The translations under genes were made by a program, and so were the position numbers. A stretch of 64,000 nt of DNA from Cladocopium goreaui. Taxonomy: Eukaryota > Sar > Dinophyceae > Suessiales > Symbiodiniaceae. The stretch's first letter is position 1. The number at the start of each line of letters is the position of its first letter. This document shows, piece after piece, positions 22,679 to 55,919 of this stretch. Under the pieces are notes generated by a model. The model did not search any database, was not told the DNA's origin, and was given only the letters and a program-made list of their open reading frames with translations. Where the stretch lies: contig CAMXCT020001023.1 of NCBI GenBank assembly GCA_947184155.2, forward strand, positions 62,001 to 126,000. The letters run 5' to 3'.

Positions 22679-23938
22679 ATGGCGCTCCTGGACAGCAAGG
22701 CACAATACCTTTCTCGGGCTAAAGAGATTGGAATCTCTGCCCCATGTGTGGATTCTCTCCACAATCATGGCATTGATTCCTTGGGGGCCCTTGCTTTCGC
22801 TGTTGGGACCACACCAGGTGAATGTTCTTCGCAGGACTTTCAACAGTTCATTCTGGACAAACAGATCCAATTAACTGGATCAGATGAGTTCTTGTTGAAG
22901 AGATTGATCTTTGAATCACAGACCTTGTTTATGACATCCATTCAAAATCAGGTCCTATCAGCCGGATTGCCAGGGACTTCTGATTCAACCTCCAAGAAGC
23001 TCCCGCCAGTTGAAAGGCAAGCACGAATCACTGAGCAAAAGAACCGCTTGATTGGTATCATTATTCAAGGCGAGTCTGAGCCTTCATTTGAATTGATTGA
23101 CCTCGCATACTCAATGATCGAATCCAAGGCCATCAAGTTCATCCCACCACATCGTTGCACCAAGCGTGACACAGAACTTTTGGAGAATACTAGCAAAGAC
23201 AAAGAGATCCTTACAATCGAACAAGGTCGCTTGACCTCCAAGAAGTCGTCTTTGCCGAATACCTCGACTTCTGATGCCTTGAAGCTTTCAAACTGCTTCT
23301 TGCGACGTGCATTGGCTTTGGATTTAGCTCAAGTTACCTCCTTTACTCAGATTAACAAGTACCATCAACTTCTTCTAGCACAGCTCTCAGTGAAAGCTCC
23401 TATTGGCTATACAGCAGCTTCTCTTCAACAGATTATCCAAGCTGATAAATCCTTTTGGACGAAGCTTGCTGAGAAGGTTGGCATTGACATCTCGCCCACC
23501 AATGTTGATCCCATTATCCAGGAGATTATGGTGGGACCAGAATTGTCTCTTCATTTGTTACCACGACCTGAAGTTTCCTCTGCCAATCCTTCTTTGAAGT
23601 CATCCCCCAATGCATCCGCTTCACAAGGTAAGGGTGCTGACAGATCTCGACCTGAAAGAGATGGCCCCTACAAAGGGAAGCAGCATAAGGGCAAAGGTAA
23701 GGGCAAGAACAAACCGCCCTCCATTTCCATGCCCTTGCCCCTTCGAGGTTTGAATCCACGCACTCGGGACAACAAACCCAAGTGTTTTGATTTCAATTTG
23801 GCACATGGGTGCCCCAACAAAGATGATTGTCCCAAAGGACACCACTCTTGTATGACTTGGTCATGTGGAGACGCCAAACACTCCTACCAGAATTGCCATG
23901 CCAAGAACAAGAAGCCGAGTGGTGGGGGACAGTCTTGA
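22679..23938 (+). CDS. Gag of YR-1 with CCCH zinc finger
   Basis: The likely structural nucleic-acid-binding protein of the element. ATG 22679 is chosen because the other copies also begin M-x(2-5)-DS near their start (MALLDSKAQY here). The frame gives 419 residues. Conserved stretches include RLIFESQTLFM, PPVERQARI, EPSFELIDL, PPHRCTKRD and a LRRALALD-type segment. A Lys/Gly-rich linker (KGKGKGKNK) precedes a C-x8-C-x5-C-x3-H finger near residues 367-388 (CFDFNLAHGCPNKDDCPKGH). A strong pyrimidine tract lies at about 22585-22640. The stop TGA is directly followed by CTA and the frame continues into Pol. Confidence 0.88.
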   Translation: MALLDSKAQYLSRAKEIGISAPCVDSLHNHGIDSLGALAFAVGTTPGECSSQDFQQFILDKQIQLTGSDEFLLKRLIFESQTLFMTSIQNQVLSAGLPGTSDSTSKKLPPVERQARITEQKNRLIGIIIQGESEPSFELIDLAYSMIESKAIKFIPPHRCTKRDTELLENTSKDKEILTIEQGRLTSKKSSLPNTSTSDALKLSNCFLRRALALDLAQVTSFTQINKYHQLLLAQLSVKAPIGYTAASLQQIIQADKSFWTKLAEKVGIDISPTNVDPIIQEIMVGPELSLHLLPRPEVSSANPSLKSSPNASASQGKGADRSRPERDGPYKGKQHKGKGKGKNKPPSISMPLPLRGLNPRTRDNKPKCFDFNLAHGCPNKDDCPKGHHSCMTWSCGDAKHSYQNCHAKNKKPSGGGQS

Positions 23939-23941
23939 CTA
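23936..23941 (+). promoter_or_regulatory. Probable readthrough stop, TGA CTA (YR-1)
   Basis: Gag ends TGA-CTA and the same frame stays open through the methyltransferase domain, which has no ATG before its first motif. UGA CUA is a known leaky stop context. Confidence 0.7.
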
Positions 23942-24680
23942 TCCCATGATGATGTGGACACGGCCTTGCATGTGGAACCTTTGTCTTCGAAGAAAGACGT
24001 TGGTCAACCTTCAAATTCAACTACCAGTCAACATCCTTCTTCGATCAGTGAACTTCTCATCGTTGAGGTCTTTGCTGGCTCTTGCAATCTTTCTACAGCT
24101 TTTGTTAAGTGTGGCTTTCAAGCTTTAGCTATTGACCACATGCAGTCTCACAAATTTCGGACAATGATCCTTGACCTCACCATTCAACAAGATCGTTCCT
24201 TGCTTTTGGAGCTCATACGAACTCAGAAACCTTTCTTGGTTTGGTTGGCTCCGCCTTGTGGTACAGCATCGAGAGCCCGTAACATTCCCGTTAAGAACAA
24301 GTTCGGCAGACCTTTTGCTACTCCTTTACGTTCAGACCTTTTCCCAGACGGACTCCCTGATTTGGACAACATTGATTTTGATCGTGTTTTAGCTGCCAAT
24401 TCTTTATATGAACTTTGCGACAACATTTGTAGTCTATGTGACAGCCCGCACATCAAGTGGATTTTGGAAAATCCTTTTGACAGTTTCTTCTGGTACACCT
24501 CTTGGATTTCTGAACGTCATCGGGCATTCCAAAAGATTTTGTTTCACAACTGCATGTATGGAGGACTTCGTCCCAAACGCACTGGCCTTTTGGCTAATTT
24601 TGATATTTCTTCTTTGGAAGCAATATGTGATGATTCTCATGACCATGCACCTTGGCGCTCTATTTCTCATGATGAAGTTC
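23939..24680 (+). pseudogene. Pol of YR-1, methyltransferase-like N-terminal part
   Basis: This is the first part of Pol, in frame with Gag after the TGA. It carries motif I-like VEVFAGSCNLSTAF (about 24062), APPCGTASRAR (about 24247), LENPFDSFFW (about 24466) and RPKRTGLLANF (about 24571). The order FxG, PPC, EN and a basic box matches motifs I, IV, VI and VIII of cytosine-C5 methyltransferases, with PCG in place of the usual PCQ. YR-2 cuts it at 24680; joining 24680 to 41253 keeps the frame (codon CAG). There is no ATG before motif I, so readthrough from Gag is the likely route of expression. Confidence 0.82.
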
Positions 24681-25127
24681 GTTGCAACTCAGCTTGCTGA
24701 TGAGACTTTATTTCCTTTAGTACTAAAAAAGAAGTTGGGAGCAACTTCTAGTAGACACGCGGTCCTGCCCCTCGCCTTTACGCGTCCCTTCTCTACGCGT
24801 CTGCGACAGCATTCGGGTTCTGGTACTGCTCTGTTTACTTGGTAAACTCTGGCTGTACCTTGCTCAACAAACTGGGGTTTGTTGGTTTTTCTGTTGACGC
24901 GTTTTTTATGGTTCTGTTTTTACAGAACTTGTTTGTTTATCTGTGTGATGTTCTTGTTTTTTATCTGTCAATGAGTGCATGACTTTTAAAACAAGAACCT
25001 TTGTTTTCTGTAAGTAAAACATGTCACACTGGTTCAGAGGAATCTTCTTTTACGTGTGGCCGTTATCAGTCAAGGCCTCCTAGGGAGGGTGGGCGGGTTC
25101 GCACGTTTTTCCTGTGACTCGTTGTTT
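24681..25127 (+). repeat. A1 repeat of YR-2
   Basis: It begins GTTGCAACTCAGC and matches 40459-40907 except for one length difference in a T run. It contains no supported gene. Confidence 0.93.
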
Positions 25128-25368
25128 GTGGCACATGGGTGTATTATGGACCTAGCTTGGGACCCAGATCGTTACGACCAAATTTCAATTTGCAGAGTGT
25201 TCTCAGTCACGTGGTGCTTGTGGAATCATACAGAATTTTCTGCTGTTGTCACTTTGGCCTTTTTGGAAGTTGGTGACCTTTACTGTTTTTGCAGTACAGC
25301 ATATTGCATTTACGTGGACTTTCCGGACATCAGGGAGGAACTGGAGCGTTACAACCGTCATTTGAGAA

Positions 25369-26150
25369 ATGGCAGATCCTGATGTGGACAGTTTTCAAGA
25401 ACTGGTGAAGTCTGGAGCTCAAGATGCTGACGAATGTTTGCTGGGTAACCCAATGAATGCTAGTGGTATCTCTAGTCAACAGGATGGTGATGACCTTGGT
25501 GATTTGTTTGGTGCACAAACTGTCACGTCACAGGGATACGTGGATACTGCAGATGTCGAGGAGGCCAAACCTCTGCACCCACCTGGAGGTGATGTTGCGG
25601 TGCCAGTTGCTGATTACAATCGCATGCTGTTTGAGGCTGCAAGGTGTAGGAGATGCTGAGCTTAAAATGCCTTGGGAAACTGGTGTCATGAAAGAAATTT
25701 TTGGTGAGGATGATGATGCATTCACTTCAACTGGATTTTTTCCGTTCGAATATCTTGGCATTGAGATGGGCCAAGCGTCGGATGCTGCAAGTGCTTCTAC
25801 GGAAATCGCAAAGAGCTCGGTGGACACAAAGTTGGAGCTACCGTGTTATTCTTTTGCAGTTAAAGTTAGACCTGATTTGGATTTTCAAGCCATGACAGAT
25901 GCTCTATGGATCAAGTCAATTTCAAAATGGAATCAAGTTTTCGAAGTGTTGTGCTTTCCTGGAGAGCTTGGCAGTGCCCTGGAATTTGAGTGCCTATGTG
26001 GGGATGGCCCAGAACTTGGCGTGGTGCTCAGGGATGCTCTTGGCATCAAGTCGCCTAGGACGGCCGTCAAGCGTGCTCAGACGTTGTTGCAGTATTTCAA
26101 ATGGCTACAGGGTGCTTACACAGACTGGGATCCATGGGACCGCTCAAGAT
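25369..26150 (+). pseudogene. Tyrosine recombinase of YR-2, 5' part
   Basis: ATG 25369 opens an acidic N-terminal region (MADPDVDSFQELVKSG). Near 25640 a one-base shift is needed to continue as VGDAELKMPWETGVMKEIF, the PWE box shared with the other YR copies, and then the helical core-binding region (SPRTAVKRAQTLLQYFKWLQ). The frame is cut at 26150 by YR-3. Joining 26150 to 33907 restores a codon (TGT) and an open frame. Confidence 0.82.
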
Positions 26151-26508
26151 GGGAGCAACTCATTTCGAAGAAATGATGATCCCCTTATTTGTATAGAAGA
26201 GGAAAAATTTTGCGGCGACAAAATTAGGTTGGGTGTTTTTGACTTCCACCTCCTGTGTTTCACACCTGTGCGTAAACAACAAGAAAATTGTGAAAACAAA
26301 TCTGTTTAATTTTTCAAAGACGGTTTTCACGTTTGACACAAAACAGAAAAGGCTCTAGGTTTTTTGGTTTGTTGGTTTGAGAGGTTTTTGAACAAGATGT
26401 CAAAACCTTCCAAACATCAGCGACATAATTTATATGTGCGCGCACGCCTCAAACCAGGGTGGGTGAGGTGGGTTTTTCACTTCACTTTTTGAGTGGTTGT
26501 GAATTTTT
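26151..26508 (+). repeat. A1 repeat of YR-3
   Basis: It begins GGGAGCAACTCATTTCG and matches 33093-33449. Three differences are seen: GCGGCG/GTGGCG, GGTTTTC/GGTTGTC and a T-run length. Confidence 0.93.
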
Positions 26509-26541
26509 GCATGTGGGTAGCTTGTTCAATGTAGTTTAGTC

Positions 26542-28488
26542 ATGGCAGCTTCTGCAGATGATAGCTGTGAACGCCTTGAAGGGACTGAACAGCTCTTTGG
26601 AGACACGGAGAAGACAGACTTGCACCTCGTTCACGCAGATGGTTCAGGAGGTTTTGGTGACATTCATGCTGGTGTTACTGGAGAAACGCAGGAATCACAG
26701 TGGCATCTGGTGTCTTCAGATCTGTTTGGTTTGCGACAACATGATGAGGTTAGCTACTCACCATCAATACGGACCGATTTTTCAGGTCTTTTGCCGGAGA
26801 TTTCAACTGACGATGATTTGAACATTGCAGAAGGTTACAATCCGGAAGCAGTGGTACAATCAGCTTGGAAAAGTCTTGCCGCAGAGACACCCAAACTACC
26901 TTGGGAACGAAATTTCTGGGATAAGTTCTTGGACCCTAATGTTTCAGCAATGGATATGCTGGAGAAAGGATTCAAAAGACCTTTGCCTGCTCCAATTTGG
27001 GAGGATGATACTAGTGCACCCTCAACTGAAGTTGACAGAAGAGTTTTCCCGAAACCATTCAAAGAGGTCAAGGGCTTTTTACAACATGTTAGAGACATCC
27101 CTGAGCGCAGCTGGAGAGCTTCAGAAAATTTGCAGTGCTTTGAAGGGAGAAAAGATCCGTTTTCCTTGCAGAGAGGAACAGTTCTACGGCTTCTTGAAAC
27201 AGGAGTCGGCAAGGGGAGCACCTGCATCACGTTTGAAGTCATTCTTTGAAGCTTTAGTCTTTGTCAGGTACGTGTTAGGAGTTGAAACCTTGCAAGCGTT
27301 GACAGAGAGCCGCAGATGCACTGGCGCTGCGTTCAGTAGGAGTTTGAGTTGTCCGAGACAGGCTGACCCTTTCACTGTCAAACAGTTGCAAATGTTCCAT
27401 ACGGTTTTGCGTGAGTCAGAAGAAATATGGAACAGAGTGATGGCTGGCATGGTCCTTTTCTGCGTCTATGCAAGAGCCAGGTGGTCCGACGCTCAGCACA
27501 CTGAAGCTTTAATTGAGGATAGGGACGGTGAACAATGCATACAGTTTCTTGAAGCAAAAACTGCAGTGCACAAAACGGCCAGGGCTTTTCATGTCAGGCA
27601 TCAGTACTTGCCAATGGCTGCACCTCCTTTGGTGTCACCGATGACAATTGGGTTTTCAGTGGACTCATGCTAGAAGGGTTTTGAAGATTGATGATTTGTC
27701 AAAATTCCTTTGATGCCAGCGCCTGACAGCATGCTGGAACCTACACGTCGGCCCCTCAGCACACAAGAGGCAAAACTTTGGATGCATGAGTTATTGGGTA
27801 ACCTTGTCAGCAAAGCTTCAAAGATCACTAGTCATTCATGCAAATGCACATGTCTTTTCTTTTTGGCAAAGAGAGGAGCTTCGTTTGAAGACAGGTTGGT
27901 ACTAGGGTATCATGCCAATTCGATGAAAATGGCCTTGGTATACAGCCGAGACAGCGCGGCCAGACCCTTAGCTTTGCTGGCACACGTCCTGAATAAAATC
28001 AAGCAGGGCACCTTTGACCCAGACTGCACTAGGAGTGGCAGGCTCAAGGCCAATGCAATTCCTCTTGATCAAGTCGAAGCCTTTTCTTTCAATCCGAGTG
28101 GTCAACAGTTTCATAGTGTTGGGGCTTCAGCTCAGAATGTTGAAAACATGTCTGAAGGGTCCTGGCAGAAGGTTACAGTGGAAGGTCTCAACAGAGCCAG
28201 AGGCTGAAGACCTTGGACAAGGCCACATCACCACCGATTTTAAGTGACTCTTCAGGGAGTAAGTGCCAAGCGTATGCACCTGTGATTGGTTACTACTTGA
28301 TAGATGTACCAGAAGACAAGAAACTTTGGCTGAACAAAAATTCACGCAGGTTTCACCTTTCAGGAGCCGAGCATGTGAAGGTCCTTCTGTATGGAAGAAG
28401 GATCACGTCAGGGTTCAGAGAGCACCAGGGTGAAGTCAGGTATGACTCAGCCAAGTGCAAGCTATGTTTCAGGCTGAAAGACAGCTGA
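26542..28488 (+). pseudogene. Tyrosine recombinase of YR-3, several frameshifts
   Basis: From ATG 26542 the acidic N-terminus leads to LPWERNFWDKFLDP (about 26897). Successive frames carry ARGAPASRLKSFFEALVF (about 27210), the catalytic VYARARWSD (about 27466), and, after a break near 27670, SHSCKCTCLFF (about 27833), LGYH and LVYSRDSA (about 27937). The C-terminal domain ends RYDSAKCKLCFRLKDS at 28488, with CxxCF kept but Tyr-Gly-Arg in place of the usual CGR. At least three frame changes make it inactive. Confidence 0.85.
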
Positions 28489-28932
28489 GTGCAACGATCC
28501 GCAAAACGTGGAAAACTCTGATCCTAACGTCTTGTGTGGATCCCAGCTGAGATTCTTACTTTATCCTTAGATGTCATCGAACTTGGTTTGCACTCATGTT
28601 TCATCTTGGCACTTAAGGCAACAGGTGACAGGTTGTTTGATGAGTTGGCAAGTTGACTTCAACTCTGTGGCAGTATGCACTGCTCAATCAACGAGGAATC
28701 GTGAAGCTTGAAGGTTCAAGCGAAACGATAGGTCGTTGGATTGGTGGAGTTGTAATCATGAGTGCATGATGTCAAAGTTTTTTCACATCGATTTTCCGAA
28801 TCACCATACATATCAGTACATTCACGTGAGCACCACTTCAAATCAAAGATGGTCAGCACAGTTTTATTTGAAGAGGTTTGCAAAACGGCGGGAAACCGGT
28901 TTCAAACTTTTCAGCTCAATTTTTAGACCAAG

Positions 28933-30148
28933 ATGTCCCTCGCTGATTCAGAAGCGGCCTTTGAACAACATTGCAATATGCTGGTAGCTGACGGCAGTTT
29001 GGCAGCCCAGCTGGTCAACAATGAGATTAAGAGTTTGAGTACCCTGGCATTTGCGTCGGGGACACCTCAAGCTCCACCCACAGAGGAGCAGTTCAAGGAC
29101 TTTGCAACGCAGATAAATGGTGGAGTTGACATGAGTTTTGGGATGCAGGCGCACCTCAAACGCTTGCACTTTGAAGCCTCAGCAATAGTAATGGCAGAAC
29201 TGAAATCCCGAGCCACGGACACCTCTACAGATGGAGCCCGGAAACTACCGCTGGCAGAGAACGCTGGCAGAGAAAGCCGCCAGGCTCAAAGACCAGGAAG
29301 CAAGGTTGCCTGGTCTTAGGCTGAAAGGCGAGCTACAGCCTTCTTACGCTTTGGTGGACTTGGTGGCACAGGTCAAAGAGACCAATTGTATTACCTGGAT
29401 ACCGCCGAGCAAATGCAGCAAGAGAGACAGTGAAGTGCAAAGCAATCTCAAAGAGAAACCCATGATGCTTTCCCTGGAACAACAGATGGTGAAGCTTGCA
29501 ACACCAGCTGAGCCGGTGGTTGCTGACACCGCGACAGATTTGCAGTTACAATGGGCGCTTCAGCGTCGGGGATTAGCGTATGACCAATGCGCTCTCATCA
29601 AATACGAGGAGCACGAAGTTTGGGTGCAGCAGCTGCTAGGGCAGTTAACAAGAGAACCACCGCCGGGGTTCGCCAAAGTTTCGATCAACCAGGTCATCAG
29701 AGCAGATCGGGAATTGTTCACGATCATGGCACAAGAACTTCAAGATACAGTCCAACCTGACGCCAGGGGGAACTTTCCGATGGAAGTCAAGCTGAAGGAG
29801 CTGAGAACAGACCCCAGGGTCACCATGTTTTTGTTGCCGATGCCGAGGGGTAGCGCCAAGGAACCTGAGAAATCCAGCCCTTCCACAGCAGCGCCAAAAG
29901 CTGCCACAGGTCCGCCCATGAGACCAACCAAGAGGCCTAAAACCTCAGCAAAAGCAAAGGCAATGTGCCCCAGTGAACTGAAAAGTTATGCGCAAAGAGA
30001 TGCGAATGGCCAAGCTATTTGTTGGGCCTTCAATCAGAAGAGCGGATGCAAGATGGAGGTCATTAACGGGCGATGCAAAAAGGGGACGCATTGCTGCATC
30101 AAGTGTCACAAGAGCAATCACAGTCTGGTCACTTGCAAATCAAACTGA
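28933..30148 (+). pseudogene. Gag of YR-3, one frameshift
   Basis: ATG 28933 gives MSLADSEAAFEQHCNML. Near 29260 the frame must shift to the one that continues NYRWQRTLAEKAARLKDQEA through PPSKCSKRDSE and LQRRGLAYDQ to the finger ICWAFNQKSGC ... CKKGTHCC near 30017-30090. It ends at TGA 30146-30148, again followed by CTA, but the readthrough frame closes after nine codons at a TAA. Homology to the Gag of YR-1, YR-2 and YR-4 is clear in block order. Confidence 0.85.
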
Positions 30149-32747
30149 CTATCGCCGGGTGTGGACAAACAAGACTAAACAGCCCTCTTGAAGAGAAAGC
30201 TGTTGGACGTGAAAAAGGGTTTTTTTCTGCAAAAAGGTCAGACTAAGCCAGAGCGTCCGATTTCACCCCCATCAACAGTTGAATAACAACATATGGGAAG
30301 TGCGACAATTCCGGTAACTGGAGTGAAAGCAGAGTTCACCGTAGACAGCGCCCAAGGCGAGAAGAAGCTCACAGGCAGATCATTACATGATTTGCTTTTG
30401 TGAAAAATGTTTTTTCGGGACAGCAAGACTGTCAAAGTGGCATGGGAGCAGGGACTTGGCTTTTGCAGGTGGACAAAACTGCGGGCAGAGCTTCACAAAA
30501 TTCTCATAGCGAGCTATGATTTAACAAGCCCGGAGGAGAGGAGTTCACTCCTTTGTTTACTGGAAACCAAGAGAGACAGAATATGGCCATCCCTTGGCCC
30601 CAGCCTGCGGCACATCTTCCATGGCAAGAGAGAAGAAGCTTTGGAACTTTAGATACAAAGGGTTCAAAGAACCGGGCCCACTGCGTCTGAGGCAAAGCCC
30701 ATGGGCTTAGACAGCCTTGCCGGACTGGATAAAACTCGCTCTGAGTCAGCCAACATTGTTTATTTTGCCACTGCAGCCATCATCAAGTTCTGCTTTCTGG
30801 ACTGTATTTTGTGCTTGTTGGAAAAACCCGGAGAACTCTATTTGCTGGGACTACCCCGAAATAGCAGAGAGCCGGTAAGAATATGTTGGCTTCAGCGTTA
30901 TTTTCATCCCTGCATGCACAGGGGCACAAGAAACAAAAGACCCAATGGTGGGCTTCAGAGGATGTTTTAACCTTCTTTCTGTTTTTTGCGACAGAAATCA
31001 CAAACACACAACACGGAATCCCACGATAGTAGGAAAACAGCTCACCTTTCCCTCAGCGGAAGAGGCAGCACATCCAGTTTTGCTCTGTAAGCACGTAGTG
31101 GTTTTACTGGTACGGTATGCGATTTTTCATGGCGCACCACAACCTTAAACTTTGGAGGAGGAAACCCCAAGGACCTCCAACACTGCGCACTGATAGATCA
31201 TCGAGATCTTGCCCAAAGGCAAAAAGATGAGGCCTTTGGAAAGTGAGTTCCGAGCATACCGCAAGTTTTCGAGTCAACCGGAACAGAAGCAAAACAAGTT
31301 TTCCTACTACAACCAAATGCGACAGAGTGGTTCATCGACAGTTGAAGTGGGGTAGGATTCGGGTCGATGGCACAACAGTTTTTGGACGACAGACAAGAAT
31401 GAAATACAGCTGGAGGACAGAACCTTCCAAGAAATTTTTGACTGGAGGGCAAAGCATTCCAAGCCGAGCCTTTCACTGTAGGTGTACCCCGAGAATCGTG
31501 GGACTTTGTGGCACAAGCAGTTTAGGCGGGTCACCCAAGGTCAATGTCACTGTATGTGAACTCGGAAGTAACGGAAATGCTTCGAGAAAACTGTGAGATG
31601 TCCCCACACTTGGGGTGAAAGTGGGGGAAAAATTTCTAGCTTTTGGTCAAAGCGCTCGAATGAGCTTGAGACTGATGAGAAAGCTTTGCATGATGGTTTG
31701 GAACCCCACCTACGTTATGTGCTTCATGGCAAGAGGCTTTCGGTTTTCAAGGAGAGGTAGACTCTTTTGGATACCCGGACAAAACAAGGGTGAAGGACAC
31801 ACTTGCTGAGTTTCCTTTGTCAGGTAGGTTGCCGAAGTCGCATGTTTTTCCAGTGGAATGAAAAAGGCCGGCTCAAACCATAGAGGCCGCTTTGAAAGTT
31901 GAAAAGGGTATCAACAAAAGCATATGCAAGCGGGTGGCAAACAATCCTGACCATGACCTAGCGAAGGAGGTTGAGGAACAGACCCAGGACAAGTTAAGCA
32001 ACCAGAGTGCGGCTGTTTCGGCAGAATGTCTGGTCCAATTGCGGGGATGGCTACAATGGTTTGAGACCTTCTCTCAGGTCAGGATTGCTCAACAATCCCC
32101 TAGAGTAATAAGCAGCGTGGCATCTGTTGGGAGGAATGCGTGAAACTTTGGGGCCCGAAGAGATTGGGGCCTTTCAATTCCTGAAGGACCGTGTTTTGGC
32201 GGCAGCGCAAACAAAGTGACGGCGGCCAATTCACAGACCTGGTATGTTTTCCTAGATGGCGCCTGCTAAGGAGACGAAGGAAACTTGGGCCTGTTGGAAA
32301 CGTCCGGTGCGTTCCGATGGCGGAGTTACCTCTTTCATATATGAGAAAGTGCCCAAACAATGGATGGACAACTTCATGAAGGAGTCGCGTCACCCAGTGT
32401 TCGAGCTTGAGTTGCTACCCATTGTGATAGCTTTGTGTGTGTTTGGGAGAAATTCCTAAGAAATGGCCAAAGCATGTTCTATCTAGACAACGAGGCAGCC
32501 AGAGAAGTTTTGATCGACAGTGCAACTCCGATTGAATCTGGCGGCTGGCTGGTCAGAACCTTCACTGTTCATGAAATGCAAGGACAGTTGAGAGTTTGGG
32601 TGCAAGAGTACCTGTTAGCAGCAATGTGGCAGACAAGCCCGTCAGGCTCGATGTGACAGAGTTGGTAGCTGAAGGCATCGACAGAGTCAACATCGATTGG
32701 GGCAACCTTTGGGAGCGAATTCAGAAGTATCGATCTGATAAGTGGGG
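30149..32747 (+). pseudogene. Pol remnants of YR-3
   Basis: Only fragments survive. Around 30818-30875 one frame reads WKNPENSICWDYPEIAES, matching the ENP...W segment of the methyltransferase domain. RNase H pieces appear as LDGACEGDEGNLG (about 32253), HPVFELELLPIVIALCVF (about 32390) and MFYLDNEAAREVLI (about 32473). I find no YxDD box, so much of the reverse transcriptase is deleted or unrecognisable. Stops interrupt every frame. Confidence 0.7.
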
Positions 32748-33092
32748 TGACGGTTAAACGGGATCGTACTTTTTCCCCTTTGCTCCGAATGAAAAAAGGT
32801 GTGCCCCGAGTGATGTCAGCCATTTTTGGAACGCTTCATTTTGTGACAGCTGTTTTTCCGTGCCAGCATCCATTTTTGAGAAGACAAGAAAATTTTGGAG
32901 AAAATTTTTAAGAGAATGGACCAAGTTTCTGAAAAGAAACGTTTGGGGATCCAATTGCGAACGACGATGCGTACATGTGATATATTTCACATATATATAC
33001 ATGTGCACTCTTATATGATAATATACGCACAATAAGGTTACAGGTATAAGGTGGAAACTTCCACCCAGCCGGTTTCCTCGAGAAACAAATAA
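32748..33092 (+). repeat. B1 repeat of YR-3
   Basis: 345 bases, seemingly identical to B2 at 33562-33906. It ends AAACAAATAA, joined directly to the GGGAGC start of A2. Confidence 0.93.
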
Positions 33093-33449
33093 GGGAGCAA
33101 CTCATTTCGAAGAAATGATGATCCCCTTATTTGTATAGAAGAGGAAAAATTTTGTGGCGACAAAATTAGGTTGGGTGTTTTTGACTTCCACCTCCTGTGT
33201 TTCACACCTGTGCGTAAACAACAAGAAAATTGTGAAAACAAATCTGTTTAATTTTTCAAAGACGGTTGTCACGTTTGACACAAAACAGAAAAGGCTCTAG
33301 GTTTTTTGGTTTGTTGGTTTGAGAGGTTTTTGAACAAGATGTCAAAACCTTCCAAACATCAGCGACATAATTTATATGTGCGCGCACGCCTCAAACCAGG
33401 GTGGGTGAGGTGGGTTTTTCACTTCACTTTTGAGTGGTTGTGAATTTTT
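33093..33449 (+). repeat. A2 repeat of YR-3
   Basis: Second copy of 26151-26508. A 112-base spacer (33450-33561) with a GAAACCTT...AAGGTTTC inverted repeat separates it from B2. Confidence 0.92.
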
Positions 33450-33561
33450 CCCGCCCAAACTGTCAGTTCTCCCGCCCCTATTTTCCCGAAACCTTGGACG
33501 CTTCGCGCGAGGAAGGTTTCCTTCTCTTTTTACAGATCCTAGAGCCTAACCCTTAGCCGTT

Positions 33562-33906
33562 TGACGGTTAAACGGGATCGTACTTTTTCCCCTTTGCTCC
33601 GAATGAAAAAAGGTGTGCCCCGAGTGATGTCAGCCATTTTTGGAACGCTTCATTTTGTGACAGCTGTTTTTCCGTGCCAGCATCCATTTTTGAGAAGACA
33701 AGAAAATTTTGGAGAAAATTTTTAAGAGAATGGACCAAGTTTCTGAAAAGAAACGTTTGGGGATCCAATTGCGAACGACGATGCGTACATGTGATATATT
33801 TCACATATATATACATGTGCACTCTTATATGATAATATACGCACAATAAGGTTACAGGTATAAGGTGGAAACTTCCACCCAGCCGGTTTCCTCGAGAAAC
33901 AAATAA
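33562..33906 (+). repeat. B2 repeat of YR-3
   Basis: Second copy of 32748-33092. Its last bases AAATAA abut the resumed YR-2 recombinase codons at 33907. Confidence 0.93.
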
Positions 33907-43621: not shown

Positions 43622-43637
43622 CAGTCAAACATTTGAG

Positions 43638-43937
43638 GATGGGACGAGAGCGTTTGACAATTTGAATCTCATTGATCATTAATGGAAATTTCGAATTGTG
43701 ATTCTGCTTCGTTTGTTTCTGACCTTCAAATTTCATGTGTTCCATCCACATCTTTGGAGATATGCGACATTCAAATTTCAATTCCAACGTATGGATTTCA
43801 GAATTGATTTGAGTTCGAATCATCCCATCGAGGTTCAAAAAGTCGGAGTGTTGCAGCCATTGATTTGCGATCAATGTTTGACCGATGTCCTTCTATTTGT
43901 TTTGTAGAATTTCTTGAGCCTCCCAAATTTAAAATAA
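43638..43937 (+). repeat. B1 repeat of YR-1
   Basis: 300 bases, one difference from B2 (44824-45123). It ends TTTAAAATAA, fused to GATCAATTTC of A2. Confidence 0.93.
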
Positions 43938-44079
43938 GATCAATTTCTAACGTAGTTAGACATCTCTTTATTTTAAATTTGTGAGTTCAGAAATTCAATC
44001 TTACTTCCGTTGCCATGGCTCAAGAAACTCTTCAAAACGCTCGAACATTTATTCATTCACAAACGTTACTTTCTTTTCC
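43938..44079 (+). repeat. A2 repeat of YR-1
   Basis: Second copy of 17819-17960, containing the spliced-leader-like sequence at 44006-44024 and the start codon of the 44015-44791 ORF. Confidence 0.92.
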
Positions 44080-44791
44080 CCCACCCTCCACATCCCATTC
44101 TTTGCCAGGTGTTATGGATACTCTTTCCAATACTATCCGTGAGTGGCTTTCTATGACCGTTGACAACGGTACTCGACTTATTCGTCTCCTCAACATCCTC
44201 TCCTTCATTCTCGAGAACATTTTCGACAGCTTTTCCGGCAGGCACTGGGCATTTATGTGTTCAGTCATTCACGCTGCCTTTTCAGGTCATTTTGAACCTG
44301 TTTCCAATTTCTTTGTCGATCACCATTCTACTTCCATTTTCCTCTTCTCCTCTTCTCTTTCAAATTCCGGCCTTGATCAACTAATTGACGATCTTTCCTT
44401 CATGAATTGTTTGATTCGTGAATTGATTTCGTTTCACCAATTCAAGGGACTGCAAACTCCGGAACTTTTGTGCTCTGTGTTGTTTTCTGCTGCTGATTTT
44501 CTTTCGGTTTTGCTTCTTGTGAAATTTATTCGAAATGTCCCGCCGGTTTTGCCGGCTACGTCCAATACTGAGAACCCTGACTTCTCTCCAGTCCTCAGTT
44601 TGATCACAGAGTTGGATCAAACCAGTGCTCCTTCAGAAGAAGGTCAAAATGATTTCGATGCGCATCTCGAATTGCAACACGATTTAGACCTTCAAGAGCA
44701 AAACGCTCAAGATGTCGCAGCATTTAACGACTGGATCACTGGATCAGGCTACAATGGCCTCTTCTGGGACGAGATTGAACCTTCGTTGTGA
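44015..44791 (+). CDS. Unrecognised 258-residue ORF between A2 and B2 of YR-1
   Basis: An intact ATG-started ORF lies in the 744-base spacer between the terminal repeats, with its first 21 codons inside A2. The middle is hydrophobic and helical (LIRLLNILSFILENIF at about residues 57-72; LCSVLFSAADFLSVLLLVKF at about 152-171), and the last 60 residues are acidic. The corresponding ATG in A1 leads only to a short frame. YR-2, YR-3 and YR-4 have short non-coding spacers here, so this is an unusual cargo position. No family is recognised. Confidence 0.55.
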   Translation: MAQETLQNARTFIHSQTLLSFPPPSTSHSLPGVMDTLSNTIREWLSMTVDNGTRLIRLLNILSFILENIFDSFSGRHWAFMCSVIHAAFSGHFEPVSNFFVDHHSTSIFLFSSSLSNSGLDQLIDDLSFMNCLIRELISFHQFKGLQTPELLCSVLFSAADFLSVLLLVKFIRNVPPVLPATSNTENPDFSPVLSLITELDQTSAPSEEGQNDFDAHLELQHDLDLQEQNAQDVAAFNDWITGSGYNGLFWDEIEPSL

Positions 44792-44823
44792 CATTTTACT
44801 TTCAATTTCCGTTTCTCAATGTG

Positions 44824-45123
44824 GATGGGACGAGAGCGTTTGACAATTTGAATCTCATTGATCATTAATGGAAATTTCGAATTGTGATTCTGCTTCGTTT
44901 GTTTCTGACCTTCAAATTTCATGTGTTCCATCCACATCTTTGGAGATATGCGACATTCAAATTTCAATTCCAACGTATGGATTTCAGAATTGATTTGAGT
45001 TCGAATCATCCCATCGAGGTTCAAAAAGTCGGAGCGTTGCAGCCATTGATTTGCGATCAATGTTTGACCGATGTCCTTCTATTTGTTTTGTAGAATTTCT
45101 TGAGCCTCCCAAATTTAAAATAA
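44824..45123 (+). repeat. B2 repeat of YR-1
   Basis: Second copy of 43638-43937 and right end of YR-1. It is followed by an A run and unrelated sequence. Confidence 0.93.
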
Positions 45124-49530: not shown

Positions 49531-50714
49531 GGTCAAAACTGGTGCCCAAAACAATGTAAAGGAGAGAGTGAGCTGGGGTAAAGTAATATTGATGTCTTAT
49601 GGTGTCTTAAATAAGGGGTTGCCATTGAGGGGGATTTAAGATTTTTAATGGTTTGTGTTTAAGTCTATGTCAATGTAGGTTCTAAAGATCGGAAATTGTT
49701 TTGCGCACATTGGATTGCGGGCACACAGTAAAACGCATAGTCTTTTTGAAAGAGCATGTCTCAGAATAAGAGGGCGTCACACTTGCCCGCATATTGGTGT
49801 GCAACTCCAACAAACAGTTCAGTGTCCTGTATCCTCTTAAGAAAGTGCAGTATTTGACCTTTGAGAGAAGTAAAATTATTGTATAATTCTTGGTTTTGAT
49901 AAGGGAGTTCAACTGATCATTCCTTTTTGACTATACAAATTTACATGTTATATAGATATGCCCAAATAAGATAGGCATACTCAGTACTCAGTATTCCAGA
50001 AACAGCGCTCAGTGATCATTTCTCTCAAAGAAGAAGTCTTCCTTCAAGAAAATAACTGTTCCGTTTCCACATGCGCAATGTTCTTTCGAAAGGGTATGCA
50101 ATTGTTTATAAACAAGGCCGGTTCTTTTCAAAGGTAAATACCTGAGGAAATATGTAGATTTCTGTGCAATAATGCAAGTTTATATAAAAGATGTCCATTC
50201 AAAACATGCATCTTTCTTCAATGGGTGCAATATTCCTCCAGGGCAGTGCTTTATGTACAAAACACATCGGCCAAATATGAAACATGGATTGAACCAATGC
50301 AATGTTAAATTCAAAAATGCAGGCAACATTCAGCAGATTTTCTGTTTGTATTTGAAGTATTCCTTTGAAAGATACAGCTGTCAGTTAAAGATGTGCAGTG
50401 TCTGAGACACACAGTTTTCATTTGAGAGATGCGGTGTTTTTCAAAGAAATAGTACTTGTTCAAAATATCAAGTATTCCCTGCAAAAAAACATGGAATTCC
50501 TTTTGACATATAGTATGCTATTCTGTCGACAACTGCAATGCTTAAACAAGTATTTCTTTGACAAATCCTTTTGAAAGGGTAGCGCTCTTCAAGTTCGGTG
50601 TTCTTTTCAAGCAGTGAAATTGCGCTACAAACCATTACAGTATTCCTGTCAGAAAGTGGTGTGTTTCTGACAATGCAAACTCGTAAACAACCAGCATTCC
50701 TTTCAAAAAAGTAC
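49531..50714. other. AT-rich non-coding DNA with recurring ATTCCTTT motifs
   Basis: No gene is supported. A loose motif (AGTATTCCTTT followed by AAAAG) recurs at roughly 40-100-base intervals between 49990 and 50710, and may be a decayed tandem repeat. Confidence 0.4.
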
Positions 50715-50828
50715 GCTACAGTGACATGTCACAAAGCTTTATGAAGTTGAAGACAGAGCGCCTGGTCTGTCAACTTTCGGTCCAAGAGGAGGGAGGGCGG
50801 GTTTGCCACCGTTCTTTTTTGCGATTTA
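50715..50828 (+). repeat. A1 repeat of YR-4
   Basis: It begins GCTACAGTGACATGTCAC and equals 58056-58169. It ends GCGATTTA, three bases before the ATG of the first gene. Confidence 0.93.
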
Positions 50829-50831
50829 GCC

Positions 50832-53326
50832 ATGGGAGATAGGTCTGTTTCCTCTCCACTGGGCATTCATTGGGCTGCATATTCTGATTCAGCACTCCTT
50901 CAGAGCATCAAAACAATTGCGGACGAGTTGCAGTCCAGAGCTGCAGCAAGAGCGGCAGGCGTTGGGCAGTCGTGGGACGCCATCACAGACATCCCTGCGG
51001 CAAAGGCTTCAGCAGTGCCCGGCCAAGGAGACAAGCCTAGCTCCACAAATGAGAAGAAGGTGGCAGAGCCAGTACAGGAGTGGTACTGAAAGCTTGGATG
51101 ACATGCCTTCCAACTTGCCTGTCAATCTAGATGGTGAAGAGTCACTGCTGGATGAGTTTTTGGGTCAATCTCCAGACGGAGTGGACCAGTTGGTAGGCCA
51201 GCAACAGGCAAGTGCGATGGGGCTTTTGTTTGGACCTCACTCAGATGATGCTTTTGCGAGTGGGGCCCATCAATCCCTTTTTGAACCCGCAGCTGAGAGT
51301 GGAAATGCAGACAGCGGTGTTAGTTTTGTGGAAGCTGGTACAGATTCTGCAGCACAGTTGGGCTCTTTTTCGCATGTGGGAAAAACCGCACCAGACACCA
51401 TTATTTCTGAAGCAATCAGGCTAACAGACAAAAAGCCTGTTCTGTATCCTTGGGAGAAAGGACGCATGGCTCGGATTTTTGGTGATAGAGGCAGACTGGA
51501 AACCAAGATGCCTCGACTGCATGCAAGTAGCAACAGTTTTGTCAAAGTGCATGTTCAAGTTGGTGAGGGTTTGCAATGTGCTGCATCCATTGGAGTGAAA
51601 CCTACCCGCACTGATGATGCCTTGTACACCAGCGTTGTTAAACAGGTCATCGGAGGATCCTACATTGAGGAGCGCGATGCCAAGCGCGAGCTAGCCGTCA
51701 GGTATTGGTGGGACCTTCTTAGACTGGATATGCAGTGTAGTGATCCAGGCAGGATCGCATTGCGAGAAAAGGGCCTGGCAGACATATACAAAAATGGGAT
51801 CGAGATCCTAGACGCATCGTTGGGCGTGAAAAGCCCCAATACAGTCATGAAAAGGTTTTATGCGGTGAAGACATATAACACTTGGGTGATGCGCCAATTT
51901 GGCAAATCCTGGCTGCCTGTAGATGAGAGGGTAGTATGGGACTACTTCAAAAACTTGAAGGCCGAAAAAGCTCCAGCCACGCGAGCTACATCGTTTCTAG
52001 AGGCTTTGAGGTTTTGCTTCTTTGTCTTCCGAGTGGATGGCTGCGAGGAAGCTCTTGGCAGCCTGCGGGTGAGAGGGCTTGCAGCACAGCTCTTTGCCTG
52101 CAAGCGACCTTGGAAACCAGCCGATCCTTTGACGGTGGCTGATGTGCAATTCTTGCACAAAGCGATGATGGACAATCGACGCTGCATGGTGGATCGAGTC
52201 TTCATTGGACACTTATTGCATATGGTGTATGCCAGAGCTCGTTTTTCGGACTTGCTGGCTTCAGTCAACTGCATGCTGGATGACGAGAACATGTTCCTTG
52301 AGCTTGATGCGGCAGTGCACAAGGGTTCAAGAACTGCAGCCACCAAGGCAATGCTATTGCCAGTGGTGGCGCCGGCCAATGGCATGCAACCGGGCTGCCG
52401 AATACCTTGCTCTGAGGAAGAAATCGGGGCTGGCTTTACCTGGTAAAGAACCTGAACCCATGTTGCCAGCTCCGGAAAAAGGTGGAGCAGGTTGGCAAAA
52501 GAGGTTCTTAACCTCACAGGAGATGAACTCCTTCATGAAGCGGCTTTTCATGGACGGCGGCATTCCATTGGAGGGCAGAAGGATCTCTACGCACTCATGC
52601 AAAGCTACATGCATTTCGTGGTGCGCTAAACATGATGTTTCTCCTGAACATCGTGCAGTGCTTGCACGCCATAGCACTGCTGCACAGGGACCTACTGCAT
52701 TGTACTCCAGGGATTTGGTGACGGCTGCACTTCGAAGTTTGGTCAAGGTCCTCGAAGCAATTCGACAGCAGGCTTTCTTTCCTGACAAATCTCGATCTGG
52801 AATGATCACTCCAGTTCCTGCGCCAAGGGCTCCAGGACCGATGATGCCGATGCCATCGACCCCAATGCCGTCTATGCAAACCGAGAACCAGGAGGTTGCA
52901 ATGGTTGAGGAGCAGCAAGATGTGGCCAGCGTGGCTCCGTCTCCAGAGAGTCCACTGCCTGAGACGCCAAAGTCGTGGCAGAAAATCGACTGGCCCACTG
53001 ATGAGGTGGTTGACGTTGAGTCGCAGGCACCCGATCCTCCTGACCTGTTGAAAGATTGGGACAGCGACTCCAGCAACTCTTGCAGTGACTCTGACAGTGA
53101 CAGTGACGTGGAGGTGAGCTTAGAACAGGCTGGTGAACCTGACAAAGCTTCTCAAGCCGCTGTGCCATCCACTTTGAAGTGGTATATCAATGGCGGCACC
53201 TTGGTAATCCATGAACGACGAAATGAAAAGTTGTTCAAGTGCGGAAGGGTCATTGGACCGCCATACTTCCCTGTGCACCAGCTGACTGGGCTGCGATGCG
53301 GACAGTGTTTTGCAAACACTCTGTGA
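50832..53326 (+). pseudogene. Tyrosine recombinase of YR-4, two frameshifts
   Basis: ATG 50832 opens MGDRSVSSPLGIHWAAYSDS. Near 51080 the frame changes to the one running to 52446, with VLYPWEKGRMARIFGDRGR (about 51438), a core-binding region and VYARARFSD (about 52226). Near 52385 it changes again to the frame ending at 53326, with STHSCKATCISW (about 52589), LARH and ALYSRDLV (about 52699). The C-terminal domain is FKCGRVIG ... LRCGQCFANTL. The catalytic Arg, His, Lys, His and Tyr are present. The gene begins three bases after A1. Confidence 0.88.
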
Positions 53327-53657: not shown

Positions 53658-54872
53658 ATGGCAGGTATTGTTGACAGTGAAGCGCACTTTGAAGCGCGAG
53701 CCAATGAGTACGGTGTGCCAGCAAATTTCTTGCAGGCACTCAGACGCGAGGGCATAACAACTGTTGGACACCTAGCCTTTGCAGTGTTTAGGCCCGGTGC
53801 AGAGTTCAACGAGCGTGAATTTGATAACTGGGCTCAAGGAGTGAACAACAATGTTCCTTTAACAATGGGTGCAGCAGCAGCAGTAAGGCGACTCCACTAT
53901 GAGTGTGAAGTGATCATGACATCGACAATCAGGTCAACTGTGGAAACTCCCGACTCTTCCACGCCAAAGGCCATACCATTTGCAGAAAAGACAGCCAGGA
54001 TGGAGCAGATAAGGTTGAGGTTGCAAGGGTTGAACATCACTGGTGTTGGTGAACCTTCGCATTCACTTTTGGACGAGTGCGCACACCAATTTGAAACTAG
54101 AGTGCTCAAATATCTTGAACCTGCAAGATGTACGAGTCGGGAAAATGAAATTACATCAGGTCGTACCGACAAGAAACTCAAGTTGGACGCTGGTAGTTTG
54201 AGTATCAAGGAATCTAAATCGGTTCCAGACGAAGCAGTATCAACCACGTACAACCTTGCGGCTTGCCTGCGCAGACGTGGAATTGCATATGACTTTGCAA
54301 ACCTGATCAGCTTTCGATCACATGAATTGTATGTGGAGAAATTGCTACGTCATCTGTCGCTGGAACCACCGCCTTCATTTCAGGCTGTCACATTGGCACA
54401 AGTCATGAGAGCGGACAAGGAAGTGTTCACATACCTTGCACACAATGTACAGGACATTAGGCCTGATGCTGCAGATGTCCGACCACTTGACAACGCATTG
54501 GAAGATGCACTGAAGGACTACAACACAGCCTTCCATCTTTTGCCTCTGCCCAAAGCACAGGCAAGTGAACATGCGCCCAAGCGCAATTATTCAGAGCCAT
54601 ATCCTACACAGAACACCTATAAAGGACGTGGCAAAAGCAAGGGCAAGGGTAGCAAAAGTTTTGGCTCCAACGCTGCACCTAAAGGCTATCCTAGATGCGT
54701 TGGGAGAGATGGCAAAAACAGGCCAATATGCTTTGACTTTAATCTTAGTCAGTGCACCAAAGCCCCTGTTGGTGCTGCATGTGCCAAAGGGCGACACGTT
54801 TGCTTCAAAGCTGGCTGTTTCAAAGCCCATCCTTACACAGAAGGACATGCTGATGAAGTCAACAAGGAGTGA
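53658..54872 (+). CDS. Gag of YR-4 with CCCH-type zinc finger
   Basis: 404 residues from ATG 53658 (MAGIVDSEAHFEARANEYG), chosen by comparison with the other Gag starts; an in-frame ATG 24 bases upstream is the alternative. Blocks match the family: RRLHYECEVIM, EPSHSLLDE, EPARCTSRENE, LRRRGIAYDF and LAQVMRADKEVF. The linker KGRGKSKGKGSK precedes CFDFNLSQCTKAPVGAACAK with GRH, a C-x7-C-x8-C-x4-H finger near residues 358-380. The stop is TGA followed by CTAG. Confidence 0.9.
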   Translation: MAGIVDSEAHFEARANEYGVPANFLQALRREGITTVGHLAFAVFRPGAEFNEREFDNWAQGVNNNVPLTMGAAAAVRRLHYECEVIMTSTIRSTVETPDSSTPKAIPFAEKTARMEQIRLRLQGLNITGVGEPSHSLLDECAHQFETRVLKYLEPARCTSRENEITSGRTDKKLKLDAGSLSIKESKSVPDEAVSTTYNLAACLRRRGIAYDFANLISFRSHELYVEKLLRHLSLEPPPSFQAVTLAQVMRADKEVFTYLAHNVQDIRPDAADVRPLDNALEDALKDYNTAFHLLPLPKAQASEHAPKRNYSEPYPTQNTYKGRGKSKGKGSKSFGSNAAPKGYPRCVGRDGKNRPICFDFNLSQCTKAPVGAACAKGRHVCFKAGCFKAHPYTEGHADEVNKE

Positions 54873-54876
54873 CTAG
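54870..54876 (+). promoter_or_regulatory. Probable readthrough stop, TGA CTA G (YR-4)
   Basis: Gag ends TGA-CTAG and the same frame stays open into the methyltransferase domain, with no ATG before motif I. UGA CUAG is the strongest widely known leaky stop context. Confidence 0.75.
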
Positions 54877-55919
54877 CCCAAACAAGGCTAGCAGATGCCA
54901 AACCTGATTTTTTGACGTCCAGTGAACATGTTGTGGTCCTGGAACTCTTTTGTGGAACTGCAGGCTTGAGTGCTTCGTTGAAACGACCTGGACTCGACAT
55001 TGTTGCAGTGGACAAGACCAAACCCAAAGCGCCTAAGGCGCTTGTTACAAAACTTGACCTGACGCTTGTCTCAAATCAACTTTTGGTGCTCAGCTGGATT
55101 CGAAACCCACAGATTAAAGCTGTCTTCATGGCCCCACCTTGCGGTACTGCCAGCGCAGCTCGTAACATACAAAGAGAAGATGACCCATTCCTGCCGCAGC
55201 CCCTGAGAACAAAAGAATTTCCTGACGGTCTGCCAGGTCTACAGAACCTGGATTTCTTGCGTGTGCAACAAAGCAATGTGCTATATGATTTTTCTGCAAC
55301 AGTTTTTGATTTATGCTGCGAGCTTGGCAAACTATGCATGTGTGAAAACCCACGGGACTCACTCTACTGGGACACCACCCCATGGATGGAACGACAACAC
55401 CAGGCCACAGACTGCGCACAATGTCACCAAGCATGTGCATATGGTTCATCACGTCCGAAGTGGACAAAATTGCTGGCAAACTTTTCAGAAGTTGAGCAAA
55501 TAAATGCAGTTTGCGATGGCAAACACAAACATGAAGCATGGGGATATCAATTTCAAAACGGCAAACGACTGTATGCAACCACTCTGGAAGTTCATTATCC
55601 CGCTGCGCTTTGTGACAAAATCGCTGCAACATTTTTACTTGCATTACAAAAGCGTGGACTTGCCGTTGCTGTGCAAGTCCCTATCAACTTTGCTGCGCGT
55701 ACTCTTGCCCAAGATCAGCCAGCCAGCAATAAAATAGCACCACTGGTACCTGAGTTCAAAAGCAAATGCATTGCGCTTTTTCATGGTGACTCATGCATAT
55801 GGCCGCACCACAGTGAATTTTTACAATGTTCAAAAGTCCTGCAAAAAGTTCAAATGGGGGGGAAAACTTGCAGTCCTTGTGCAACAATATCAATGACCAA
55901 TGTCGAGTTTGGAATATAG
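54873..55919 (+). CDS. Methyltransferase-like part of YR-4 Pol
   Basis: In frame with Gag after the TGA. It shows VLELFCGTAGLSASL (about 54936), the acidic turn VAVDK, APPCGTASAARN (about 55130), CENPRDSLYW (about 55340) and RPKWTKLLANF (about 55455). These match motifs I, IV, VI and VIII of cytosine-C5 methyltransferases, with Cys as possible nucleophile and PCG instead of PCQ. It may methylate the element's DNA copy or its target, but activity is unproven. The frame ends at 55919, overlapping the reverse transcriptase frame, which lies in -1. Confidence 0.82.
   Translation, partial: LAQTRLADAKPDFLTSSEHVVVLELFCGTAGLSASLKRPGLDIVAVDKTKPKAPKALVTKLDLTLVSNQLLVLSWIRNPQIKAVFMAPPCGTASAARNIQREDDPFLPQPLRTKEFPDGLPGLQNLDFLRVQQSNVLYDFSATVFDLCCELGKLCMCENPRDSLYWDTTPWMERQHQATDCAQCHQACAYGSSRPKWTKLLANFSEVEQINAVCDGKHKHEAWGYQFQNGKRLYATTLEVHYPAALCDKIAATFLLALQKRGLAVAVQVPINFAARTLAQDQPASNKIAPLVPEFKSKCIALFHGDSCIWPHHSEFLQCSKVLQKVQMGGKTCSPCATISMTNVEFGI

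What the first reader, a model, noticed from the sequence alone, without database searches (positions are those of the whole stretch)
22679..55919. Gag and Pol share one frame across a single TGA, mostly TGA CTA: probable stop-codon readthrough
At 23936 (YR-1), 30146 (YR-3), 36935 (YR-2) and 54870 (YR-4) Gag ends in TGA and the very next triplet is CTA, CTA, CTT and CTA(G). In YR-1, YR-2 and YR-4 the same frame stays open into the methyltransferase domain; in YR-3 it closes after nine codons through decay. YR-1 and YR-4 have no ATG before the first methyltransferase motif. UGA CUA is an established leaky context. Four independent copies with the same stop and almost the same context point to selection. 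I know of no YR retrotransposon described with this strategy.
Basis: partly seen in the sequence, partly recalled or inferred. Interest (0 to 1): 0.88.

Follow-up and report, generated by a model that had tools for sequence, protein, structure and literature searches.

The report
Leaky stop links retrotransposon Gag, Pol
In tyrosine-recombinase retrotransposons of a dinoflagellate alga, every readable copy examined has one UGA stop codon between the shell-protein frame and the enzyme frame, often in a sequence setting known to let ribosomes slip through, so the enzymes are most likely made by occasional reading through that stop.

Summary
Confirmed and extended. The four window junctions read as described: TGA CTA, TGA CTA, TGA CTT, TGA CTA. 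The window lies in a 1.17-Gb assembly, by its DVNP genes a dinoflagellate. Of 179 stretches examined (175 elsewhere in that genome, 4 here), 171 have a readable Gag/Pol junction; all 171 have TGA, and in 166 Pol is in frame with Gag. In 91 clusters the next codon is CTA in 38, the +4 base C in 79, CTG or TTG in none. Pol ends in 20 relatives: TGA 13, TAA 4, TAG 3, never TGA CTA. On a Gag tree the codon after the stop changed at least 38 times, the stop never. 71 of 161 copies have no Met before the methyltransferase motif. Two small clades carry partly compensated RNA stems starting 8-10 bases after the stop. Best explanation: programmed UGA readthrough makes Gag-Pol. Translation was not shown, and one genome was seen. 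The elements resemble published SymbioDIRS-Dnmt3 in architecture; my searches found no report of readthrough in YR retrotransposons. CTA is the commonest context, not the rule.

The parts
22679..23935 (+). YR-1 Gag ORF (CCCH-like zinc finger near its end)
23936..23944 (+). YR-1 junction: TGA CTA TCC
23939..24680 (+). YR-1 Pol, methyltransferase part; interrupted by YR-2 from 24681
41386..43621 (+). RT-RNase H part taken as the rest of YR-1 Pol beyond the nested insertion (two overlapping frames)
28933..30145 (+). YR-3 Gag, decayed (first part in another frame)
30146..30154 (+). YR-3 junction: TGA CTA TCG; frame closes after nine codons
35732..36934 (+). YR-2 Gag ORF
36935..36943 (+). YR-2 junction: TGA CTT TTA
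36938..40189 (+). YR-2 Pol: methyltransferase-like, RT, RNase H; 1083 codons open
36956..36962 (+). YR-2 clade: 5' arm (GTTTCAT) of a putative long-range RNA stem, 18 bases after the stop
37025..37031 (+). YR-2 clade: 3' arm (GTGAAAC) of that stem
53658..54869 (+). YR-4 Gag ORF (open from 53634; start taken from homology)
54870..54878 (+). YR-4 junction: TGA CTA GCC
54873..58018 (+). YR-4 Pol: methyltransferase-like, RT, RNase H (frame change near 55.8-55.9 kb)
50830..53326 (+). YR-4 recombinase gene (two frames), upstream of Gag
33908..35288 (+). YR-2 recombinase gene, part beyond the nested YR-3; its first part lies before 26151
20595..22115 (+). YR-1 recombinase gene
50702..50828 (+). YR-4 split direct repeat A1
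57966..58323 (+). YR-4 split direct repeats B1 (57966-58055), A2 (58044-58169), B2 (58234-58323)
24681..41256 (+). YR-2 as inserted: A1 24681-25130, B1 40261-40461, A2 40459-40909, B2 41055-41256
26151..33907 (+). YR-3 as inserted in YR-2: A1 26151-26508, B1 32748-33093, A2 33093-33449, B2 33562-33907
17819..45123 (+). YR-1 with the other two nested in it: A1 17819-17960, B1 43634-43937, A2 43938-44079, B2 44820-45123

Best explanation
These are DIRS-like tyrosine-recombinase retrotransposons whose Gag ends in a UGA that a minority of ribosomes read through, giving Gag and a smaller amount of Gag-Pol (methyltransferase-like, RT, RNase H) from one frame. Shown: one TGA in every readable copy examined, in the same place after the Gag zinc finger, with the following bases biased to C and to CTA, and coding-type constraint right after the stop. 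Supported in a few clades: RNA stems 3' of the stop. Inferred: that ribosomes do read through, by a near-cognate tRNA, and that the ratio matters for particle assembly as in retroviruses.
For: TGA in 171 of 171 readable junctions of 179 stretches; Gag in frame with Pol in 166; 43 distinct linker lengths, 13-145 codons, in the 161 copies with a measured linker. Codon after the stop, majority in 91 clusters: CTA 38, CTC 13, CAA 8, CGG 5, CTT 5, rest 22; CTG and TTG none, although they are 56% of Leu codons in the Gag tails and CTA 4.5%. Controls: Pol-end stops of 20 copies TGA 13, TAA 4, TAG 3; +4 C in 2; CTA in 0. In 25 pairs (each copy used once) the stop differs at 0 of 75 sites, the next codon at 1 of 75, codons +2..+14 at 113 of 975, 53 of these at third positions. 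On a tree of 90 Gag tails: at least 38 changes of the codon after the stop, 41 of the codon before it, none of the stop. Stems with changes on both sides of pairs. Four of the 20 loci have recombinase, Gag and Pol frames otherwise open and still carry the TGA, so it is not decay. UGA followed by CUA or CGG is the type II context (PMC3542737, passages); UGA-CUA alone gave 1.5%, and UGA-CUAG genes about 3.5 to 31%, in reporter assays in human cells (PMC4132726, passages).
Against: No translation data and one genome only. In 35 of 91 clusters the codon is not CTA, CTC or CTT, and 12 of 91 lack C at +4. TGA alone is weak evidence in the YR-4 clade, where the upstream recombinase frames of 500 codons or more also end in TGA (15 of 15, none followed by CTA). 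The 25 pairs include repeated comparisons (L010-L012 and L011-L013, L019-L025 and L020-L026), so their p value is optimistic. Stronger folding is not concentrated in clusters lacking CTA (p 0.96) or CT (p 0.88), so 'structure replaces CTA' is not shown. The downstream folding excess is modest (mean z -0.82, n 88, against -0.26, n 91, upstream). The YR-2 stem shows no compensatory change, and L148 of that clade breaks it. Tca2 of Candida has a gag UGA whose local sequence did not direct readthrough in S. cerevisiae (PMC2194720, abstract).
Confidence: 0.87

Rival explanations
1. Pol is made on its own, from a trans-spliced or internally promoted RNA or by reinitiation after Gag, and the TGA simply ends Gag.
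For: Dinoflagellates trans-splice (recalled); the Tca2 gag-pol junction holds a minor promoter (PMC2194720, abstract); 90 of 161 copies do have a Met codon between the TGA and the methyltransferase motif.
Against: It does not explain why the frame is kept in 166 of 171, why the stop does not vary while the 20 Pol-end stops do, or why C and CTA follow it. 71 of 161 copies have no Met before the motif; in the YR-2 clade the candidate Met is Val, Leu or absent in several members. Third-position bias is seen in the first codons after the stop.
Confidence: 0.08
2. UGA is a sense codon in this alga, wholly or by context, so Gag-Pol is simply one gene.
For: An Amoebophrya, a relative of dinoflagellates, is reported to use all three stops as sense codons (PMC6394959, listing and start of abstract).
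Against: UGA ends Pol in 13 of 20 copies and 15 of 15 upstream recombinase frames of 500 codons or more; many Pol frames run over 1000 codons without an inner TGA.
Confidence: 0.03
3. UGA is read as selenocysteine.
For: Selenoproteins exist in dinoflagellates (recalled).
Against: The codon sits in a poorly conserved Gag tail and linker; the C and CTA bias fits readthrough contexts. SECIS structures were not searched for.
Confidence: 0.01
4. The TGA is an old decay mutation inherited by all copies.
For: Many copies are decayed.
Against: Four of 20 loci with the other frames open carry it, and it stays while the codons on both sides change.
Confidence: 0.01

Closest known systems
SymbioDIRS-Dnmt3 retrotransposons of Symbiodinium (de Mendoza et al. 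2018, PMC5890265; section 6 and passages seen)
   Same: Dinoflagellate host, tyrosine recombinase in its own ORF, a cytosine-methyltransferase domain in the Pol ORF with RT, A-coding-B-A-B repeats; the paper notes two architectures with shuffled order of integrase and Pol, and an RT that fits Pfam badly.
   Different: The main text has 'gag' 0 and 'readthrough' 0 times. Here only YR-4's methyltransferase part matches Pfam DNA_methylase, below the curated cut-off, and has PPCG where such enzymes usually have PCQ or PCN (recalled). No sequence of that paper was compared.
Type II stop-codon readthrough signals of viruses, and UGA-CUAG in vertebrate genes (PMC3542737, PMC4132726; passages)
   Same: UGA followed by CUA or CGG; a stem starting around 8 bases after the stop in some.
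   Different: Here in a retrotransposon, between Gag and Pol, with wide context turnover (CTC, CTT, CAA, CCC, GGA, AAA also).
Gammaretrovirus gag-pol UAG readthrough (PMC3542737, passages)
   Same: Gag and Pol in one frame across one stop.
   Different: UAG-G with a compact pseudoknot there; UGA, mostly UGA-C, here.
Tca2, a retrotransposon of Candida albicans (PMC2194720, abstract)
   Same: A UGA between gag and pol.
   Different: An LTR element; its local junction did not drive readthrough in yeast.
Ngaro elements of Cafeteria (PMC8547959, passages)
   Same: YR retrotransposon with A1-ORFs-B1A2B2.
   Different: Order Gag, RT-RH, YR; HxxR motif; 'readthrough' 0 times.

Membership tests
Tyrosine-recombinase (DIRS-like) retrotransposon | Tyrosine recombinase instead of DDE integrase | tested here: inconclusive
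   Invariant R, K, H..K, H, Y in 12 of 12 aligned ORFs (reading as active site recalled; HxxR is HxxK); Phage_integrase E 0.21 in 1 of 4; structure model unusable (mean pLDDT 38.6).
Tyrosine-recombinase (DIRS-like) retrotransposon | RT with RNase H | tested here: inconclusive
   RVT_1 E 0.041 and 0.026, under the cut-off; DD of the RT and RNase H-like acidic residues invariant in the 6-sequence Pol alignment (motif reading recalled). PMC5890265 says Symbiodinium DIRS RTs align badly with Pfam.
Tyrosine-recombinase (DIRS-like) retrotransposon | Split direct repeats A1-coding-B1-A2-B2 | tested here: met
   The four window elements; not tested in the other loci.
SymbioDIRS-Dnmt3 | Dnmt3-clade methyltransferase in Pol | tested here: inconclusive
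   DNA_methylase E 0.0067 in YR-4 only, a DNMT2 chain at E 0.94; no tree made.
Type II readthrough signal | UGA stop | tested here: met
   171 of 171 readable junctions.
Type II readthrough signal | CUA or CGG after the stop | tested here: inconclusive
   43 of 91 clusters (CTA 38, CGG 5); not met in the other 48.
Type II readthrough signal | RNA stem starting about 8 bases after the stop | tested here: inconclusive
   Good in L104/L108/L170, fair in L169/L174/L177/L183; many CTA families show no such stem.
Programmed readthrough | Measured production of the fusion protein | not testable with these tools
   No expression data.

The most novel reading that the evidence does not exclude
A whole superfamily of dinoflagellate YR retrotransposons depends on one fixed UGA readthrough for Pol, while the stimulating signal around it has been replaced dozens of times: leaky CTA(G), CGG plus stem, CAR-YYA, and clade-specific downstream RNA structures. 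It would be the first YR retrotransposons known to do so and a natural library of readthrough signals in an alga.
Probability: 0.65. Interest if true: 0.82.

Novelty: new variant of a known kind. Interest (0 to 1): 0.74.

Why it matters
If true, YR retrotransposons join retroviruses in setting a Gag to Gag-Pol ratio by leaky termination, in a eukaryotic group whose translation control is little known (recalled). The first looks of the three searches gave 4041, 3181 and 3865 candidates (overlapping, mostly unscored), so one alga may offer a large evolved set of contexts to test which bases and structures make UGA leaky. Annotation that ends Gag at UGA and starts Pol at the first ATG would miss the N-terminal part of Pol.

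Tried and rejected
Structure replacing CTA: tested, not supported. Relatives in viral contigs and in prokaryote genome contigs: none confirmed, so all evidence is from one genome. Protein database search: switched off. Structure prediction of the recombinase from four window sequences: unusable. Profile search of the methyltransferase, recombinase and Pol against solved structures: nothing significant. NCBIfam: nothing convincing. A query spanning the junction, to tally stops in many more copies: not completed.

Rows dropped or added before counts: my pattern left out 13 of 179 rows; five frameshifted ones were recovered by hand (L029, L033, L052, L058, L062); six others had been added by eye because a damaged, short or odd finger failed the pattern (L022, L050, L056, L059, L114, L160). 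Eight stay uncounted as partial, at a contig end or rearranged (L034, L054, L060, L061, L139, L150, L161, L180); the first in-frame stops met in L150 and L180 are TAA, in rearranged sequence and inside the linker, not at a Gag end. Pol ends: 25 picked among the first 115 copies, the first 20 fetched. Structure counts: the YR-2 alignment omits L141 (near copy of L140) and L148, whose 5' arm does not fit; the long-linker CTA alignment omits L071, L073, L075, L084 and L094 of the group of 18, which lack the hairpin. The structures were chosen after seeing the sequences.
Full report
What is there. In each, Gag and the next frame are the same frame. The Gags share a zinc-finger tail shortly before the stop; in three of the four the methyltransferase-like domain follows in frame, and in YR-3 the frame closes after nine codons.

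The elements. Self-comparison of the window shows split direct repeats for all four: A1 - coding - B1 - A2 - B2. YR-3 (26151-33907) lies inside the recombinase gene of YR-2 (24681-41256), which lies inside YR-1 (17819-45123). This would explain why the YR-1 frame ends at 24700: YR-2 begins at 24681, and an RT part that would complete YR-1 Pol lies at 41386-43621, where it matches YR-2 Pol (29% identity over 299 columns). The recombinase lies upstream of Gag in YR-1, YR-2 and YR-4, in YR-3 by eye from the ORF list, and in the nine loci aligned. The aligned recombinase frames, nine loci and three from the window, share invariant R, K, H..K, H and Y (12 of 12); reading these as active-site residues is recalled.

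The organism. The window belongs to an assembly of 1.17 Gb in 6202 contigs. Pfam DVNP, a dinoflagellate nucleoprotein family (recalled), matches 34 places there and none of 14 control genomes.

Sampling. A search with the YR-4 methyltransferase gave 116 scored places of 4041 candidates; I took all 115 outside the window's own. From the lists (150 rows; 126 rows) I took 60 more, chosen for spread over families and not by their stops. With the four in the window that makes 179 stretches. Of these 171 have a readable junction; what was dropped and added is told in Tried and rejected.

Result 1: the stop does not vary. TGA in 171 of 171. In 166 Gag and Pol share one frame; the linker has 43 different lengths, 13 to 145 codons, in the 161 copies where it was measured. 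Ends of Pol in 20 relatives: TGA 13, TAA 4, TAG 3; 91 of 91 clusters against 13 of 20, Fisher p 2e-6. A limit: in the YR-4 clade 15 of 15 upstream recombinase frames of 500 codons or more also end in TGA, followed by TCC, TGC, TAT, ACC or TGA, never CTA. There the context, more than the stop itself, sets the junction apart.

Result 2: what follows is biased but not fixed. Codon after the stop in 171 copies: CTA 80, CTC 32, CTT 10, CAA 9, CAG 6, CGG 5, then CCC, AAA, GGA 4 each and rarer ones. In 91 clusters (80% identity, single linkage): CTA 38, +4 C 79. The +7 base is G in 22 of the 38 CTA clusters. CTG and TTG, 56% of Leu codons in the Gag tails, are absent; CTA is 4.5% of Leu codons. Other TGA trinucleotides in the Gag regions are followed by CTA in 9 of 576. 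The YR-2 clade shows CAG, CCC, CTA, CCA, CTC, GGT, GAT, CAT, CAA and CTT, and a clade of three copies has AAA or AAG.

Result 3: it is under selection. In 25 pairs, each copy used once, the stop differs at 0 of 75 sites and the next codon at 1 of 75, against 227 of 2100 in the flanks, Fisher p 2e-6; some pairs repeat one comparison, so the p is optimistic. Differences in codons +2 to +14 fall 30, 30, 53 on positions 1, 2, 3 (p 0.002 for the third): the Pol frame looks coding from the stop on, though less constrained than the Gag tail (16, 23, 75). On a tree of 90 Gag tails the codon after the stop changed at least 38 times, the codon before it 41, the stop never.

Result 4: no start codon is kept for Pol. 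71 of 161 copies, and at least one member in 39 of 86 clusters, have no Met between the stop and the methyltransferase motif; 90 of 161 copies do have one.

Result 5: RNA structure in some clades. Downstream folding is stronger than upstream on average (mean z -0.82, n 88, against -0.26, n 91; p 0.011). In one clade (L104 UGA-CAA, L108 and L170 UGA-CGG) a hairpin of 9 to 11 pairs starts 8 to 10 bases after the stop, with changes on both sides in 4 of 11 pairs and 93.9% of cells paired (2 of 500 shuffles reach that percentage; three sequences only). In another (L169, L174, L177, L183; AGG, CGA, CGA, CGG) an 11-pair stem starts 10 bases after the stop, 93.2% paired, two pairs changed on both sides (70 of 500 shuffles reach the latter). 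In 13 of 18 sequences of a long-linker CTA group a hairpin with an AAAG loop has 17 cells changed on both sides (0 of 500); five of the group lack it, and it may also serve a basic protein motif. In 15 sequences of the YR-2 clade GTTTCA is invariant and GTGARAC complementary to it, with no compensatory change; L148, left out, breaks it. Against a simple trade-off: clusters without CTA or without CT do not fold better as a group (p 0.96, 0.88).

How it most likely works. Most ribosomes end Gag at UGA; a small share insert an amino acid and make Gag-Pol. UGA followed by CUA or CGG, often with a stem about 8 bases on, is the type II signal of viruses (PMC3542737, passages); UGA-CUA alone gave 1.5% (PMC4132726, passages). 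CAR-YYA, the type I motif, follows the UGA in one family (L047-L049). The fraction and the need for a ratio are inferred. How Gag, which lies behind the recombinase gene, gets its message is not known; trans-splicing is a guess.

What is known. The closest elements by architecture are SymbioDIRS-Dnmt3 (PMC5890265; section 6 and passages): DIRS-like, a cytosine methyltransferase in Pol, A-coding-B-A-B repeats, two gene orders. That main text has 'gag' 0 and 'readthrough' 0 times. Library searches for DIRS with dinoflagellate, for DIRS and tyrosine recombinase with readthrough, for dinoflagellates with stop-codon readthrough, for retrotransposon gag with stop-codon readthrough, for DIRS gag with stop codon, and for Symbiodinium with retrotransposon and readthrough listed no report of this. 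I saw listings, and passages or abstracts of the papers named and of PMC3537659 only; the library lacks most subscription papers. Novelty is likely, not proven. A caution is Tca2, whose gag-UGA-pol junction did not by itself cause readthrough in yeast (PMC2194720, abstract).

Verdict. One genome only, and no translation data.

Noticed in passing
17819-45123: Three YR elements nested in one another (YR-3 in YR-2 in YR-1), each with its own A1-B1-A2-B2 repeats.
   Followed up: yes
window YR ORFs and nine of the loci L010-L028: The recombinase motif HxxR is HxxK in all 12 aligned frames; unusual for tyrosine recombinases (recalled).
   Followed up: partly
window elements and nine loci: Gene order recombinase-Gag-Pol; better-known YR retrotransposons put Gag first (recalled; also PMC8547959).
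   Followed up: partly
58723-59335: Array of 16-base tandem repeats, open in three frames.
   Followed up: no
L035-L053, just after the junction: A GGTTTCAC stretch (7 of 11 sequences) like the YR-2 clade's GTTTCA but in another reading frame.
   Followed up: no
60951-62972: A further long recombinase ORF (YR-5); a Gag of its own would lie at or beyond the window end.
   Followed up: no
G000:C1225:598030-617938: DVNP matches in tandem at about 1-kb spacing, with one gap.
   Followed up: no
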